A stretch of 25,120 nt of DNA from a virus. The notes beneath the pieces are model-generated. The model was not told the origin of the DNA. It worked only from the letters and a program-made list of their open reading frames with translations, and did not search any database. The position numbers were made by a program, and so were the translations under genes. This document shows positions 83 to 5,591 of this stretch, piece after piece. Positions within the stretch are counted from its first letter, which is position 1. Each line of letters begins with the position of its first letter. The DNA is taken from positions 1-25,120 of IMG/VR virus record IMGVR_UViG_3300005288_000295. One strand, written 5' to 3'.

Positions 83-114
83 CTGCAATGTGAAACTAAT
101 TACGGGAAGGGCAC

Positions 115-142
115 TTAACCGGTCTTATGTAGCCCTTATCAT
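115..142 (+). promoter_or_regulatory. Candidate promoter for the plus-strand SGNH lipoprotein
   Basis: TTAACC at 115-120 and TATCAT at 137-142 are 16 bp apart and resemble sigma-70-type -35 and -10 boxes (4/6 and 5/6 matches). They lie about 30 bp upstream of the chosen TTG start. The gene is isolated from all others on its strand, so it needs a promoter of its own. This is the best candidate seen, but it rests on inspection only. Confidence 0.35.
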
Positions 143-175: not shown

Positions 176-838
176 TTGAAGCTCCGGGCCATGCTTGTTT
201 TCGCTTTGACTGCTGCAGTGCTGGCCGGGTGCGCAGCCGAGCCGCCGCCCGTTTCTGAGAAGGTCCAGCAGGCATATGACAACATCGGGAAGGCCACCCT
301 TCAGCCCAGCCCGAAGGCGATCACCGTTACCGCTATCGGTGATTCCGTCACTGCAGGCAATAGCCCGAACTTCATGGCCGGTCAACTCGGTACGCTGTCT
401 TGGGTTTCTCTGTTGCCGAGCGGCGAGCAGTTCGTGGGCGGGTGGGCGCTCAAGGGCGCCACTACCGAGGACATGCTAGCCAACGCCAAGCCCGTGGCTG
501 CCGACGTGCTTGTGATCATTGCCGGGACGAACGACGGTGGCCGGGTGCCGTTCGCCACCAGCGCCGACCACCTGAAGGCCATAGCCCAGAAGGTCGGCGC
601 TAAACGGGTGGTCGTGTCGGCCATCCCGCCGCGTGATGCCAATCCGGAATGGGCCACAGACTACAACCTTCAGTTGCAGCCCTTCGCCGTTTCGCAGGGT
701 TGGCAATTCGTTGACCCCATGGTTGGCGTACGTAGCGGCGACCACTACATTCCCGGCATGACAGCCGATGGTGTACATCCGACAGCGCCCGCCGTGAAGA
801 TCATCGCGGAATCCCTGGCCACCGCAATCAAGGGCTAG
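176..838 (+). CDS. SGNH/GDSL hydrolase lipoprotein (antisense moron)
   Basis: This encodes a predicted membrane-anchored serine esterase of 220 aa. I chose the TTG at 176 because GGGGGA lies 4 nt upstream and it begins a clean lipoprotein signal peptide (MKLR, a hydrophobic stretch, then LAGC with lipid-modified Cys19). A longer reading from TTG 164 lacks that fit. SGNH landmarks are present: GDSVT with Ser57, GTND at 117-120, and DGVHP with Asp198 and His201. By analogy with the family it should hydrolyse an ester on the outer face of the cell membrane, such as an acetyl or acyl group on envelope polymers; the substrate is unknown. It is one of only two plus-strand genes here and probably has its own promoter. 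Its TAG stop shares a CTAG with the stop of the convergent tail SGNH hydrolase. That suggests a moron gene acting on the infected or lysogenic host. Confidence 0.85.
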   Translation: MKLRAMLVFALTAAVLAGCAAEPPPVSEKVQQAYDNIGKATLQPSPKAITVTAIGDSVTAGNSPNFMAGQLGTLSWVSLLPSGEQFVGGWALKGATTEDMLANAKPVAADVLVIIAGTNDGGRVPFATSADHLKAIAQKVGAKRVVVSAIPPRDANPEWATDYNLQLQPFAVSQGWQFVDPMVGVRSGDHYIPGMTADGVHPTAPAVKIIAESLATAIKG

Positions 839-2016
839 CCCAGCCCGAGCCTGGTCAAGTTGTACAGGCCGAGCTGGGCGAACTTGTACGTCCCCGTGCC
901 AGCACCAGCGCTCAGTAGGATCTTGACGAACGTAGTTCCTGCCGGGACAGTCTTGGTCATCGAGAACACGCCGTTAGTGATGGTCTGCGTGAGGCTGCTG
1001 ACTGGCTTGTAGTCCGTGTTCACCGAGCCGTTGTAGAAGCGGAAGTAAACGATGGGCGTTGACCCGCCCGAGAGCCCTGACACGTCGATCCGGCCCGAGA
1101 GTTGCAAGACATCGCCAGCAGCGAAGCCGCCGCCCGCGCCGTTCACGTCATACTCGATGGTGCGGGCGGATGCCGCCGCTGACATCGCGATCTGAGCCCA
1201 GTTGCCCTTGATGGCCGTATCCCCGGTAATGATGGTGTGCGTGAAGCCGGAAGAGCCGCCAGAGGCGGTCCAGCTATCCGGTACGCCGTCCGCGTTCGCG
1301 TCCGTCAGGAACAACCCATTGGGCAGCAGGTTGGTGCCGTCCGCATTCTCCGTGGGCAGTGGCGGGGACCACGGCGGCAGGAACGGTGCCAGCACAGTGT
1401 TGACGAGGTTCCCCATGGCGAGGTAGCCCGCCGCGTTGGGGTGGGTGCCGTCGCCGCTGTCATAGGCGGAAATGTAGCCGCCCGTTGACGGTTCCGTAAG
1501 CAGGGTGTTGAAGTCGATGAGCGGGATGCCCTCCTGCGCGGCATACCGGCGAATCCAAGCGTTGGTCTGGGACGTGCCCGCCCGCTTCGAAGCACGCGGC
1601 GCGATAGTGCACAGAACCGGCGCGATCCCCGCCTCACGCAACTTCCGCACGATGGCCACCATGTTCGCAACATAGGTCGTGAACGCGATGCCCTGATTGA
1701 CATCGTTTGTCCCGGCCTTGATCGTGCAGAACGTCGGGCTTTTGGAAATCACGTCTGCCTGCACCCGCGAGAGAATGTCGGCGCTCGTGTTCCCTGCGAT
1801 GCCAGCGTTGTAGACAAGGTTGATGCGCTGCGCGGACAGCAGCCCCGCGTAGGTCGGCCAGCCGTCGCCAAAGCTGGAGGATGTTGAAGCAGCCTGGGTA
1901 ATTGAGTCCCCGAGAGCCACCCACCGGTTTCCGTAGACCGATCGGCCAACCGGGGCGAATGAAGGGCCACCTGCTGCCTTCGCGAGACTGCCTGACTGGC
2001 TTACGCTGCGGCTCAT
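835..2016 (-). CDS. Tail-associated SGNH/GDSL hydrolase, minor tail protein
   Basis: This 393-aa protein joins an N-terminal SGNH hydrolase domain (about residues 30-212) to a C-terminal beta-rich region resembling a carbohydrate-binding or tail-fibre domain (about 225-393). Catalytic landmarks are GDSIT with Ser38, an NAGIAGN block at 70-76, GTND at 102-105, and DGTHP with Asp189 and His192. There is no signal peptide, as expected of a virion protein. The ATG overlaps the upstream stop as ATGA, so it is translationally coupled to the FN3-containing tail protein. A likely role is deacetylating or de-esterifying host cell-wall glycopolymer during adsorption. That is inferred from the family and its position last in the tail operon, before the terminator at 48-82. 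Confidence 0.88.
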   Translation of the reverse strand: MSRSVSQSGSLAKAAGGPSFAPVGRSVYGNRWVALGDSITQAASTSSSFGDGWPTYAGLLSAQRINLVYNAGIAGNTSADILSRVQADVISKSPTFCTIKAGTNDVNQGIAFTTYVANMVAIVRKLREAGIAPVLCTIAPRASKRAGTSQTNAWIRRYAAQEGIPLIDFNTLLTEPSTGGYISAYDSGDGTHPNAAGYLAMGNLVNTVLAPFLPPWSPPLPTENADGTNLLPNGLFLTDANADGVPDSWTASGGSSGFTHTIITGDTAIKGNWAQIAMSAAASARTIEYDVNGAGGGFAAGDVLQLSGRIDVSGLSGGSTPIVYFRFYNGSVNTDYKPVSSLTQTITNGVFSMTKTVPAGTTFVKILLSAGAGTGTYKFAQLGLYNLTRLGLG

Positions 2017-2708
2017 GCGTGCACCGTTCCCGTCACTACAATGTCAACGGCATTGGCTTGGCTGGCGTAACCGGCGATGATGTCACCGGGGCCGAGCATT
2101 GCGCTTCCGATGTAGTCCCGGAGGGGCAGGGTGTCATTAGCTCCCAAGGAGTAGGCGTTCAGGACGCGGTGTGTGCCGTCTCCGAGGGTGCCGCCTGTCT
2201 GGACAAGGGACAGGTAAACCGTGACTGGCGTTGCGAAATTGCTGACGGTGGGGAGGCTCGCAGCGGCGCCGGCGAGGCCAGTGTCGGTGTAGCTTGTTCC
2301 CGCAACGGCGGTGACGAGGACGTTCTCAGCACCGGCTGCGGTGCCACGGTAGATGTTGAAAAATGCTGCACCGGGGATGGCGGCCCAAGACAGGGGCTGG
2401 CTGGAGGTGGTGCCCGTGGTGGTGGCTGTGACCTCATTGGAGGCCAGGGTCTCACCGGATGCTGAACGGGCGGTGATCTTCCAGTAATAGGTGCTCGCCG
2501 CAAGGGTACCGCCCGTGGTGGACGTGGTGCCGAGCACAAGGACCGGTGGCGCGGTATTGGCGGTTACGTTGCAGATGGACCCTTGGGACACCTTCACGGA
2601 CGTGCTGGCGGGCACGGTATAGACCGCTGCGTCCGATGTGCCGAGCTGCTGCGAGACGATCACCTGCGGGCTGATGGACGTTGCTGCTTTGATGTTCTGA
2701 CCAGCCAT
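2013..2708 (-). CDS. Minor tail protein with an internal FN3-like domain
   Basis: This 231-aa protein appears to have a split architecture. Residues 1-50 and 158-231 read as one compact beta-domain of the kind seen in small phage tail or fibre proteins (VYTVPAST near 29-36; PVTVYL at 161-166; HRVLNAYSLGANDTLPL at 180-196). Between them (about 51-157) lies an FN3-like module with YYWKITARSASGET and NEVTATT strands and a FNIYRGT segment. FN3 modules are common on phage surfaces and are usually linked to weak carbohydrate binding. ATGA overlap with the next gene and the short gap to the previous one place it in the tail-tip operon. The tail role is inferred; the domain insertion is read from the sequence. 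Confidence 0.75.
   Translation of the reverse strand: MAGQNIKAATSISPQVIVSQQLGTSDAAVYTVPASTSVKVSQGSICNVTANTAPPVLVLGTTSTTGGTLAASTYYWKITARSASGETLASNEVTATTTGTTSSQPLSWAAIPGAAFFNIYRGTAAGAENVLVTAVAGTSYTDTGLAGAAASLPTVSNFATPVTVYLSLVQTGGTLGDGTHRVLNAYSLGANDTLPLRDYIGSAMLGPGDIIAGYASQANAVDIVVTGTVHA
2238..2558 (-). other. FN3-like domain insertion (residues ~51-157)
   Basis: This segment encodes the Ig-like module that interrupts the 2013-2708 protein. The flanking halves, ending NVTA and resuming at NFATPVTVYL, look as if they continue one fold. Boundaries are approximate and set by eye from sequence character. Confidence 0.5.
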
Positions 2709-4412: not shown

Positions 4413-5591
4413 TTACGCGGGGTAGAGGGTGCTCGACGGGTAAGTGGTCGAGTCAGGGAAGACGTGCGCGAGATCCACGCCAAGGACGGGCAGTGCCAAG
4501 TTCGCGGCGGTCAGGCTGGCGTTGGAGGAAAGGTCAAGGATTGGCGTGATGGTGTTGTCATCGAGTTGCCAGCCCATGATCCGGGCCGTGCCCTTGAGCC
4601 CGGTTGACCATGCCTTGGTGGTCAGGTCGAAGCCGACGTCGTCACCGATGCCCCAGTCTTTGCCGACTTGCGGGGCTTCCAGTCTCGAGGCGGTGATTGT
4701 GAGGGCTGATGAGCCGTCCTTCATGGCAGCAAGTGCGCGCTGGGCGTGGGTGGTGAGATCGTCAATGGTCGTAATGGACGTGCCCGGGCTCCAGCGGAAG
4801 TCAATCCTCGGCCGATCGCCATACCCGTCTGTCGGGGTCTGTGGCGGCGACTGGGGGCGTGCCGTTCCAGCACCGGATGATGTGGCCATGACGTTGTTCG
4901 CGCCCTGCCCTGACGAGTAGGACTCGACCAGCTTGGCCTTCTGGACAGGCCCGGGAAGGTTGAACGTTGCGTTCGGCCCAAGCCCTGCGGATACTGCGTT
5001 GCCTATCCGTGTGCCGACGTACAGGACGGGAGTGTAGAGGTTGCCCACGACTTCCCAGCCGACAGTCCACTCCGGGCCGCCGATCAGGCCAGACAGTTCG
5101 CCAAGCACCGAATACAGGGTTTTGTCACCGGAGTCCGCCCATGAATGGTCACGGAGCATGCCGACGCCGCCGACGATCTGCACCCGGATCGGGATACCAT
5201 CAGCCCCGCCCCCGTATTTATTCACGAGATACTGGACGATCAAGTTCTGATCCCAGCCAGTGAACGACTCGTCACCGACATCCCGGCTATCGAAATAGCT
5301 CTCGATTGTGGCCAAGTCCAGTTGGATAAAGTCGGTCTCGTCGGTCGTGCGATTGATGACCCAGCCGCCCCACAATGGGGTGGTGGTGTCGTCGGCTAGG
5401 CAGATGACCGTTGCGGCCTTCTTCTCGGTCGCCGTGATCCAGTTCTGAGGGGCCGAGTCGAGCGGGATCTTCGCGGACTGGGACTCGTACCGCATCAAGG
5501 TCTTGGGCATTGGCCCGCCCATGACGAGGTCCGTGAGGTCTGCGAGGACAGCGCCCGTCTTGGCGGCCACGGAAATGTAGCTGAGAGTCAT
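4413..5591 (-). CDS. Minor tail protein (tail-tip/baseplate hub-like)
   Basis: This 392-aa protein resembles the large tail-tip proteins of actinophages (a Gp37-like, non-enzymatic hub fold). It starts with a compact beta-region (MTLSYISVAAKTGAVL), has an LWGGWVINRTTDETDFIQLDL segment near 73-93, a Gly/Ser/Pro-rich linker near 227-260, and ends DSTTYPSSTLYPA. Phage tail-tip proteins often share such a terminus, and the tail terminator product here has a similar ending. No hydrolase signature was seen. It lies after the lysis genes and before the hexapeptide fibre, so it belongs to the same tail-tip set as the genes upstream of the lysis cassette. Exact role uncertain. Confidence 0.72.
   Translation of the reverse strand: MTLSYISVAAKTGAVLADLTDLVMGGPMPKTLMRYESQSAKIPLDSAPQNWITATEKKAATVICLADDTTTPLWGGWVINRTTDETDFIQLDLATIESYFDSRDVGDESFTGWDQNLIVQYLVNKYGGGADGIPIRVQIVGGVGMLRDHSWADSGDKTLYSVLGELSGLIGGPEWTVGWEVVGNLYTPVLYVGTRIGNAVSAGLGPNATFNLPGPVQKAKLVESYSSGQGANNVMATSSGAGTARPQSPPQTPTDGYGDRPRIDFRWSPGTSITTIDDLTTHAQRALAAMKDGSSALTITASRLEAPQVGKDWGIGDDVGFDLTTKAWSTGLKGTARIMGWQLDDNTITPILDLSSNASLTAANLALPVLGVDLAHVFPDSTTYPSSTLYPA

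What the first reader, a model, noticed from the sequence alone, without database searches (positions are those of the whole stretch)
176..2016. Two convergent SGNH hydrolases, one lipoprotein and one tail protein, sharing a CTAG stop
The tail operon ends in an SGNH hydrolase with no signal peptide (835-2016, minus), while the opposing gene (176-838, plus) encodes a different SGNH hydrolase with a lipobox. Their stop codons share one palindromic CTAG. One enzyme would travel on the virion; the other would sit on the surface of the infected or lysogenic cell. A possible logic is that the tail enzyme trims a surface ester needed for adsorption and the lipoprotein removes or alters the same group on the host, giving superinfection exclusion or helping release of progeny. 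Seen: motifs, signal, layout. Inferred: shared substrate and exclusion role.
Basis: partly seen in the sequence, partly recalled or inferred. Interest (0 to 1): 0.75.

Follow-up and report, generated by a model that had tools for sequence, protein, structure and literature searches.

The report
Phage surface-editing gene opposite tail enzyme
The end of this Arthrobacter-type phage's tail operon runs head-on into a lipid-anchored surface enzyme gene, and related temperate phages carry the same swappable pair (a tail enzyme facing a surface-sugar-modifying enzyme), which suggests that the prophage alters its host's coat to keep rival phages out.

Summary
176-838 (+) encodes an SGNH lipoprotein (lipobox LAGC), 835-2016 (-) a tail SGNH enzyme, and their stops share CTAG 835-838. 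The 4-bp overlap is ordinary packing; the pairing is not. In all 12 sequenced Arthrobacter globiformis phages found through an unrelated minor-tail gene of the window, the last tail gene (usually a polysaccharide esterase or deacetylase) faces glycan-editing genes (SGNH, AT3 acyltransferase, Wzy polymerase, or glycosyltransferase plus hexapeptide acetyltransferase), followed by an integrase. Across six lineages, four upstream tail genes are homologous in 15/15 pairs (77-82% identity), but the tail enzyme in 1/15 and the surface gene in 2/15: a hypervariable cassette. The window's lipoprotein shares its anchor and linker (PPPVSEKVQxxYD) with other phage surface enzymes carrying different SGNH heads at the same position. 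The best reading is lysogenic conversion of the surface glycan, blocking phages that need it, analogous to P22 gtrABC and Sf6 oac, here in Gram-positive phages. Acyl removal versus addition is undecided. The gene is accessory: some relatives lack it. No expression, adsorption or enzyme data exist.

The parts
176..838 (+). SGNH lipoprotein (surface enzyme), 220 aa, TTG start
   Evidence: translation; Pfam PF13472; lipobox LAGC with Cys codon 230-232
242..280 (+). membrane-proximal linker PPPVSEKVQQAYD shared by phage surface SGNHs with different catalytic heads
344..778 (+). SGNH catalytic core, Ser57 codon 344-346 to His201 codon 776-778
   Evidence: alignment A3
835..2016 (-). tail SGNH enzyme, last gene of the late operon (Ser38 codon 1903-1905, His192 codon 1441-1443)
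835..838 (.). CTAG shared by the two stop codons
58..83 (-). intrinsic terminator of the tail strand, beyond the surface gene
   Evidence: equivalent in L084 3780-3804
107..137 (+). conserved intergenic element AAGGGCACTTAACCGGTCTTATGTAGCCCTT 5' of the surface gene, found almost only in Arthrobacter phages among phage records
115..142 (+). promoter-like TTAACC-16-TATCAT
   Evidence: consensus match only
2013..2708 (-). tail operon gene next to the tail SGNH; relatives occupy the same place in L084 and lie in the tail region of the A. liuii prophage
4413..5591 (-). minor tail protein used as SGNH-independent bait for the census of 12 Arthrobacter phages

Best explanation
176-838 is a lysogenic-conversion gene (moron) at the junction of the late operon and the lysogeny/integration region. 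In the lysogen its product would be exported, lipidated and held at the outer face of the membrane, where its SGNH domain edits acyl groups on a surface glycan. The edited glycan would no longer be a good receptor or substrate for phages whose tails carry glycan esterases or deacetylases, including the phage's own tail enzyme (835-2016). After induction, late transcription would read antisense through the gene to the terminator at 83-58 and could damp its expression. Shown: sequence features, recurrence, position, variable cassette, terminator position. Inferred: expression in the lysogen, glycan target, exclusion, antisense control.
For: (1) Census through an SGNH-independent minor-tail gene: all 12 distinct Arthrobacter phages have glycan-editing gene(s) facing the last tail gene, followed by an integrase (Pfam). 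(2) The surface side includes known receptor-converting families: AT3 (Hum25, Kukla, Faja) and Wzy_C (Elesar, Maja above cut-off; Faja weak). (3) The cassette is hypervariable between conserved tail genes (15/15 pairs homologous) and, in three phage pairs, near-identical integrases (Kukla/TripleJ 97.6%, Popper/Elesar 95%, Faja/EvePickles 89%), as expected for a locus under receptor-specificity selection. (4) In the census genomes every SGNH and AT3 hit lies in the cassette. (5) An 8-residue anchor motif searched over 2.9 million viral contigs gave in-frame hits only in SGNH lipoproteins at this position; L084 has int - SGNH lipoprotein - 4-bp overlap - tail SGNH. (6) Precedents: P22 gtrABC, D3 Oac and SF6 as receptor modifiers (PMC11436027); SF6 acetylation gives immunity to SF6 by hindering its tail endorhamnosidase (PMC9558356); the tail SGNH gp63.1 of G7C deacetylates O-antigen and this is essential for infection (PMC13123978).
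Against: No transcript, protein, substrate or adsorption data. The window lacks an integrase because it is cut at position 1. The gene is accessory: five contigs with the same intergenic element have no surface gene (L107, L108, L109, L112, L114; L107 and L114 have a tail SGNH) and one has an HNH nuclease there (L110). The two Micrococcaceae genomes with the closest full-length tail SGNH (G154, G332) have no SGNH or AT3 opposite it. The census phages all infect one host strain, so they sample one ecology. A surface enzyme could serve lysogen fitness unrelated to phages.
Confidence: 0.6

Rival explanations
1. The lipoprotein is an acyl TRANSFERASE half, not a hydrolase: a detached version of the extracytoplasmic SGNH domain of AT3-SGNH acyltransferases that takes acyl groups from a host or phage AT3 protein and adds an ester to the glycan. 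The outcome (receptor change) is the same but the chemistry is opposite.
For: Kukla gp30 (SGNH) is beside gp31 (AT3); the A. terricola prophage has an SGNH lipoprotein followed by an AT3-SGNH; host homologues L049, L050 and L055 (42-48% identical to the window protein) are followed by an AT3 gene. Shoya gp26, a stand-alone membrane SGNH, aligns over nearly its whole length with Hum25 gp27 residues 375-643, i.e. membrane segment, linker and SGNH of a fused AT3-SGNH. AT3 WecH can work with separate SGNH PatB (PMC9558356).
Against: The window has no AT3 gene in view; many phage lipoproteins (TripleJ, L084, Popper) have none beside them. The closest solved relatives are mostly hydrolases, with PatB and OatA much weaker.
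Confidence: 0.35
2. The surface gene benefits the lysogen in ways unrelated to phages (wall remodelling, escape from grazers or antibiotics, use of acylated carbon sources), and sits here only because the late-operon end next to the integration region is a tolerant insertion site.
For: The position also takes an HNH nuclease (L110) or nothing (five contigs). P0001-like SGNHs are common chromosomal genes in Micrococcaceae (54 of 395 genomes).
Against: In the 12-phage census the gene class is always glycan-editing and the facing tail gene usually a glycan enzyme; in tail-SGNH phages without an integrase the facing gene is absent in Jasmine, Shocker, Thatch and Jojan60, although Belphegor has one.
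Confidence: 0.25
3. A non-enzymatic superinfection-exclusion lipoprotein of the Ltp kind that binds the incoming phage's tail or tape measure.
For: Lipid-anchored, apparently prophage-expressed, like Ltp of TP-J34 (PMC3952083).
Against: Full SGNH catalytic domain with all blocks intact; alternatives at the same locus are glycan enzymes; no Ltp similarity was found in Pfam or PHROGs.
Confidence: 0.07
4. Receptor-destroying enzyme for release of progeny during lysis.
For: Viral receptor-destroying esterases exist in other virus groups (general knowledge).
Against: The gene is on the strand opposite to the late genes, with its own upstream region; late transcription would be antisense to it.
Confidence: 0.05

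Closest known systems
P22-like gtrABC and Sf6/D3 oac receptor-converting (serotype-converting) genes
   Same: Prophage-encoded enzymes modify the surface glycan that the phage's own tail uses as receptor; highly mobile gene clusters (PMC2629481; PMC9558356; PMC11436027).
   Different: Gram-negative LPS versus an actinobacterial surface glycan; here the modifier is an SGNH lipoprotein facing an SGNH tail enzyme; conversion has not been demonstrated.
Tail SGNH deacetylases (G7C gp63.1; Klebsiella prophage SGNH receptor-binding proteins)
   Same: SGNH domain in a tail protein, expected to remove acyl groups from a surface glycan (PMC13123978).
   Different: Those reports concern the virion enzyme; in the passages read, a facing surface enzyme was not described. 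The tail gene here is at most about 43% identical to the relatives found.
AT3-SGNH acyltransferases (OafB, OatA) and split PatA/PatB
   Same: Extracytoplasmic SGNH domain close to the membrane; adjacent AT3 genes in Kukla, the A. terricola prophage and host chromosomes.
   Different: No AT3 domain or gene in the window; lipid anchor in place of the eleventh transmembrane helix.
Ltp-type superinfection-exclusion lipoproteins
   Same: Prophage lipoprotein at the outer face of the membrane.
   Different: Ltp is in the lysogeny module and, as I recall, has no enzyme domain; here a complete SGNH enzyme.
Microbacterium phage Footloose gp27/gp28, Arthrobacter phage TripleJ gp31/gp32, IMG/VR contig L084
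   Same: Convergent tail SGNH and surface SGNH, then integrase; L084 also has a 4-bp stop overlap, TripleJ and L084 the anchor motif.
   Different: Catalytic heads differ; the named phages are annotated only as esterase/hydrolase.

Membership tests
SGNH/GDSL hydrolase superfamily | Catalytic Ser, Gly, Asn and Asp-x-x-His blocks on a Lipase_GDSL_2 domain | tested here: met
   Both proteins above the Pfam cut-off; blocks G55-D-S, G94, G-T-N-D, D198/H201 in P0001; fold search of the P0001 model gives SGNH enzymes (model pLDDT 65)
Bacterial lipoprotein | N-terminal signal with lipobox ending in Cys | tested here: met
   KLRAMLVFALTAAVLAGC by inspection; lipidation itself not testable
Tail (virion) protein for 835-2016 | Part of the tail operon, related to phage tail enzymes | tested here: met
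   Position after tape measure, Dit and minor tail genes; homologues annotated as esterases or tail proteins in tail regions. Presence in virions not testable
Receptor-converting (serotype-converting) prophage gene | Encodes a surface-glycan-modifying enzyme linked to the integration/tail region of a temperate phage | tested here: inconclusive
   Met in relatives: 12/12 census phages, L084, L081, Footloose, Hum25, Shoya, RootBeer, Mbo4, Maja. For the window itself the tail link is met but an integrase would lie outside the record, and the glycan substrate is inferred
Receptor-converting (serotype-converting) prophage gene | Expressed from the prophage and changes the host glycan so that adsorption is lost | not testable with these tools
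   needs RNA, glycan chemistry and adsorption assays
AT3-SGNH acyltransferase | AT3 membrane domain fused or encoded alongside | tested here: not met
   No AT3 in the protein and no AT3 gene seen near it; but the window is cut at position 1
Ltp-type exclusion lipoprotein | Non-enzymatic lipoprotein targeting the tape measure | tested here: not met
   Complete SGNH domain, no Ltp-type family hit; binding not testable

The most novel reading that the evidence does not exclude
Temperate actinophages carry a dedicated exchange locus in which a tail enzyme and a lysogeny-expressed surface enzyme are swapped independently, head by head, on conserved anchors. The surface lipoprotein (anchor plus PPPVSxKVQ linker plus interchangeable SGNH head) is a detached acyltransferase module that uses host AT3 proteins to write new esters on the actinobacterial wall glycan, and mutual antisense transcription switches between coat-editing in the lysogen and tail production in the lytic cycle.
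Probability: 0.15. Interest if true: 0.85.

Novelty: new variant of a known kind. Interest (0 to 1): 0.66.

Why it matters
Receptor conversion by prophages is known mainly from Gram-negative O-antigens; the exclusion review consulted contains no mention of actinobacteria, mycobacteria or esterases (PMC11436027). If the reading is right, surface-glycan conversion is routine in temperate actinobacteriophages, many so-called esterases and hydrolases in these genomes get a function, and the locus can be used to predict which phages exclude each other. It is directly testable in a harmless laboratory strain, A. globiformis B-2979, with phages already in hand (TripleJ, Kukla, Popper, Elesar, Hum25).

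Tried and rejected
(a) CTAG overlap as a special signal: rejected; other cases have TTAG, a 3-bp gap or 10-14 bp overlaps. (b) Strict matching of tail and surface chemistry: rejected by Popper/Elesar and Kukla/Popper. (c) Universality: rejected; five element-bearing contigs lack the gene and L110 has an HNH nuclease. (d) P0001-like hits in Curtobacterium and Microbacterium phages (Wolfstar, Elener, Shrew, Sunfish, Parvaparticeps): not convergent with a tail gene; set aside. (e) P0001-like genes in 54 of 395 Micrococcaceae genomes: in the 20 regions read the relatives are nearly all chromosomal, pointing to a host origin of this SGNH head. (f) AlphaFold of the tail enzyme: unusable (pLDDT 46.6); of the lipoprotein: moderate (65.4), so no active-site comparison was made. 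(g) Scans of IMG/VR with P0002 and Shoya gp26: no relatives recovered. (h) Conserved intergenic element as the surface gene's promoter: not decided, because it also occurs where no surface gene follows.

Full report
OBSERVATION. Both genes are real and at the stated coordinates. 176-838 (+) encodes a 220-aa SGNH protein with a lipoprotein signal ending in LAGC; 835-2016 (-) encodes a 393-aa SGNH protein without a signal. Both exceed Pfam's cut-off for Lipase_GDSL_2 and keep the catalytic blocks. The stops share CTAG 835-838. The minus-strand operon holds terminase, portal, capsid, major tail, tape measure, Dit and endolysin genes. The record is a 25,120-base linear IMG/VR contig, so what lies left of position 1 is unknown.

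WHAT LIES BETWEEN. Because the stops overlap, no terminator can sit between the genes. The only strong tail-strand terminator in the region is at 83-58, beyond the far end of the lipoprotein gene; L084 has the equivalent at 3804-3780. A late transcript would therefore run antisense across the whole lipoprotein gene. This follows from sequence; its regulatory effect is inference. No terminator was found by the same scan in TripleJ.

SAME LAYOUT ELSEWHERE. Microbacterium phage Footloose has tail esterase gp27 facing membrane SGNH gp28, 3 bp apart, then an integrase. Arthrobacter phage Hum25 has esterase gp26 facing a 646-aa AT3-SGNH acyltransferase, then an integrase. Kukla has a tail SGNH facing an SGNH plus an AT3; Shoya and RootBeer a tail SGNH facing a membrane SGNH; Rhodococcus phage Mbo4 a pectin-lyase tail protein facing an SGNH with a 4-bp CTAG overlap; Maja a tail esterase facing a Wzy_C protein with a 4-bp CTAG overlap. 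Gordonia phage Belphegor has a convergent SGNH pair but inside the late operon and without a detected integrase.

CENSUS WITHOUT SGNH BIAS. The window's minor tail protein 4413-5591 was used as bait. In the phage collection it has 22 matching records: 12 distinct A. globiformis phages and two Bifidobacterium phages, the latter not inspected. All 12 Arthrobacter phages have glycan-editing gene(s) on the opposite strand facing the last tail gene, with integrase and repressor genes beyond. Six cassette types: TripleJ (SGNH/SGNH lipoprotein), Kukla (SGNH/SGNH+AT3), the Popper group of seven (SGNH/small gene+SGNH), Elesar (beta-helix+SGNH/Wzy_C), EvePickles (polysaccharide deacetylase/annotated glycosyltransferase+hexapeptide acetyltransferase), Faja (weak alpha/beta-hydrolase/small gene+AT3+weak Wzy_C). 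In these genomes every SGNH and AT3 hit falls in the cassette.

A HYPERVARIABLE CASSETTE. Among one representative of each type, four consecutive upstream tail genes are homologous in 15/15 pairs (mean 77-82% identity); the tail enzyme in 1/15, the surface gene in 2/15. On the other side, integrases are 97.6% identical in Kukla/TripleJ, 95% in Popper/Elesar and 89% in Faja/EvePickles. So the pair is exchanged between conserved flanks. The two halves move independently: Popper and Elesar share the tail SGNH (81%) but not the surface gene; Kukla and Popper share surface SGNHs (39%) but not the tail enzyme.

ANCHOR AND HEAD. The window lipoprotein shares its signal, lipobox and linker PPPVSEKVQxxYD with TripleJ gp32 (54% over residues 2-46 only), L084, L081, and the A. 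terricola and A. liuii prophage proteins. Shoya gp26 has PPPVSAKVQEFYDKN behind a transmembrane anchor, and L092 has PPPVSQKVQEYYDNN. A DNA pattern for PPVSEKVQ over 2.9 million viral contigs returned nine stretches; the three with the motif in a called ORF are all SGNH lipoproteins at this position. In 395 Micrococcaceae genomes it occurs twice, one the A. terricola prophage and one a broken copy. The catalytic heads differ: the window head is 42-48% identical to chromosomal Micrococcaceae SGNHs, L081 and L084 group with Kukla and Popper, and terricola with liuii. One anchor thus carries several heads, one of them apparently host-derived.

TEMPERATE LINK. Of the phages first reached through tail-SGNH similarity, those with an integrase (Footloose, Hum25) have the facing gene; Jasmine, Shocker, Thatch and Jojan60, without a detected tyrosine or serine integrase, do not; Belphegor is an exception. 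The numbers are small.

LIMITS OF THE PATTERN. A 31-base intergenic element 5' of the window gene (107-137) recurs upstream of other surface genes; a 34-nt query hits almost only Arthrobacter phages among 50,697 records (20 of 22 matched records). Of ten IMG/VR contigs with its core, one is chance; of the rest, Maja's (Wzy), L113 (a membrane protein that looks like a polymerase, no Pfam hit) and L115 (looks like a hexapeptide transferase) have a surface-type gene, L110 an HNH nuclease, and five nothing. The closest full-length tail SGNHs in bacterial genomes (G154, G332) face small unrelated genes. The surface gene is therefore an accessory moron, strongly but not always of glycan-editing type.

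MECHANISM. By analogy with SF6, whose acetylation of the O-antigen hinders its own tail endorhamnosidase and gives immunity to superinfection (PMC9558356), with D3 and P22 (PMC11436027) and with tail SGNH deacetylases needed for infection (G7C gp63.1, PMC13123978), the lipoprotein most likely edits the surface glycan of the lysogen so that incoming phages lose their substrate. Whether it removes or adds acyl groups is open: stand-alone surface SGNHs are related to the SGNH half of AT3-SGNH acyltransferases (Shoya gp26 against Hum25 gp27 375-643) and several sit beside AT3 genes in phages and hosts. The confidences of the best explanation and of the transferase rival overlap, because the rival is a different chemistry for the same conversion.

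LITERATURE. A report on cluster FF phage QuinnAvery discusses its integration region but does not contain the words esterase, surface or superinfection (PMC13097055); the exclusion review has no actinobacterial or esterase example. Searches covered open-access papers only.

Noticed in passing
window 107-137; also L071, L073, L074, L077, L095-L098, L100, L106-L115: Conserved intergenic element (core CTTAACCGGTCTTA inside inverted GGGC...GCCC) near the late-operon end of Arthrobacter phages, even where no surface gene follows; could be an att core, a promoter/operator or a stoperator-like site.
   Followed up: partly
L103 7920-8609, L081 3835-4476, L047 11016-11555, L048 17551-18096: Further lipoprotein genes of unknown function in the lysogeny region or on the strand opposite the tail operon.
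   Followed up: no
L049 7700-9691, L050 7369-9225, L055 6549-8318: Micrococcaceae chromosomes carry an SGNH secreted or lipoprotein gene followed by a single-domain AT3 gene, a candidate split acyltransferase.
   Followed up: partly
L057 7856-8571 (G390): Host copy of the motif-bearing SGNH lipoprotein interrupted by a frameshift or stop; possibly a prophage remnant.
   Followed up: no
L100 3473-6406 (EvePickles): Tail enzyme is a polysaccharide deacetylase and the facing genes are a glycosyltransferase and a hexapeptide acetyltransferase: a change of chemistry on both sides of the cassette.
   Followed up: partly
window 2013-2708 against L008 18339-19625: Part of the tail operon gene next to the tail SGNH is 65% identical to part of a 428-aa tail-region protein of the A. 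liuii prophage; probably a shared decoration domain.
   Followed up: no
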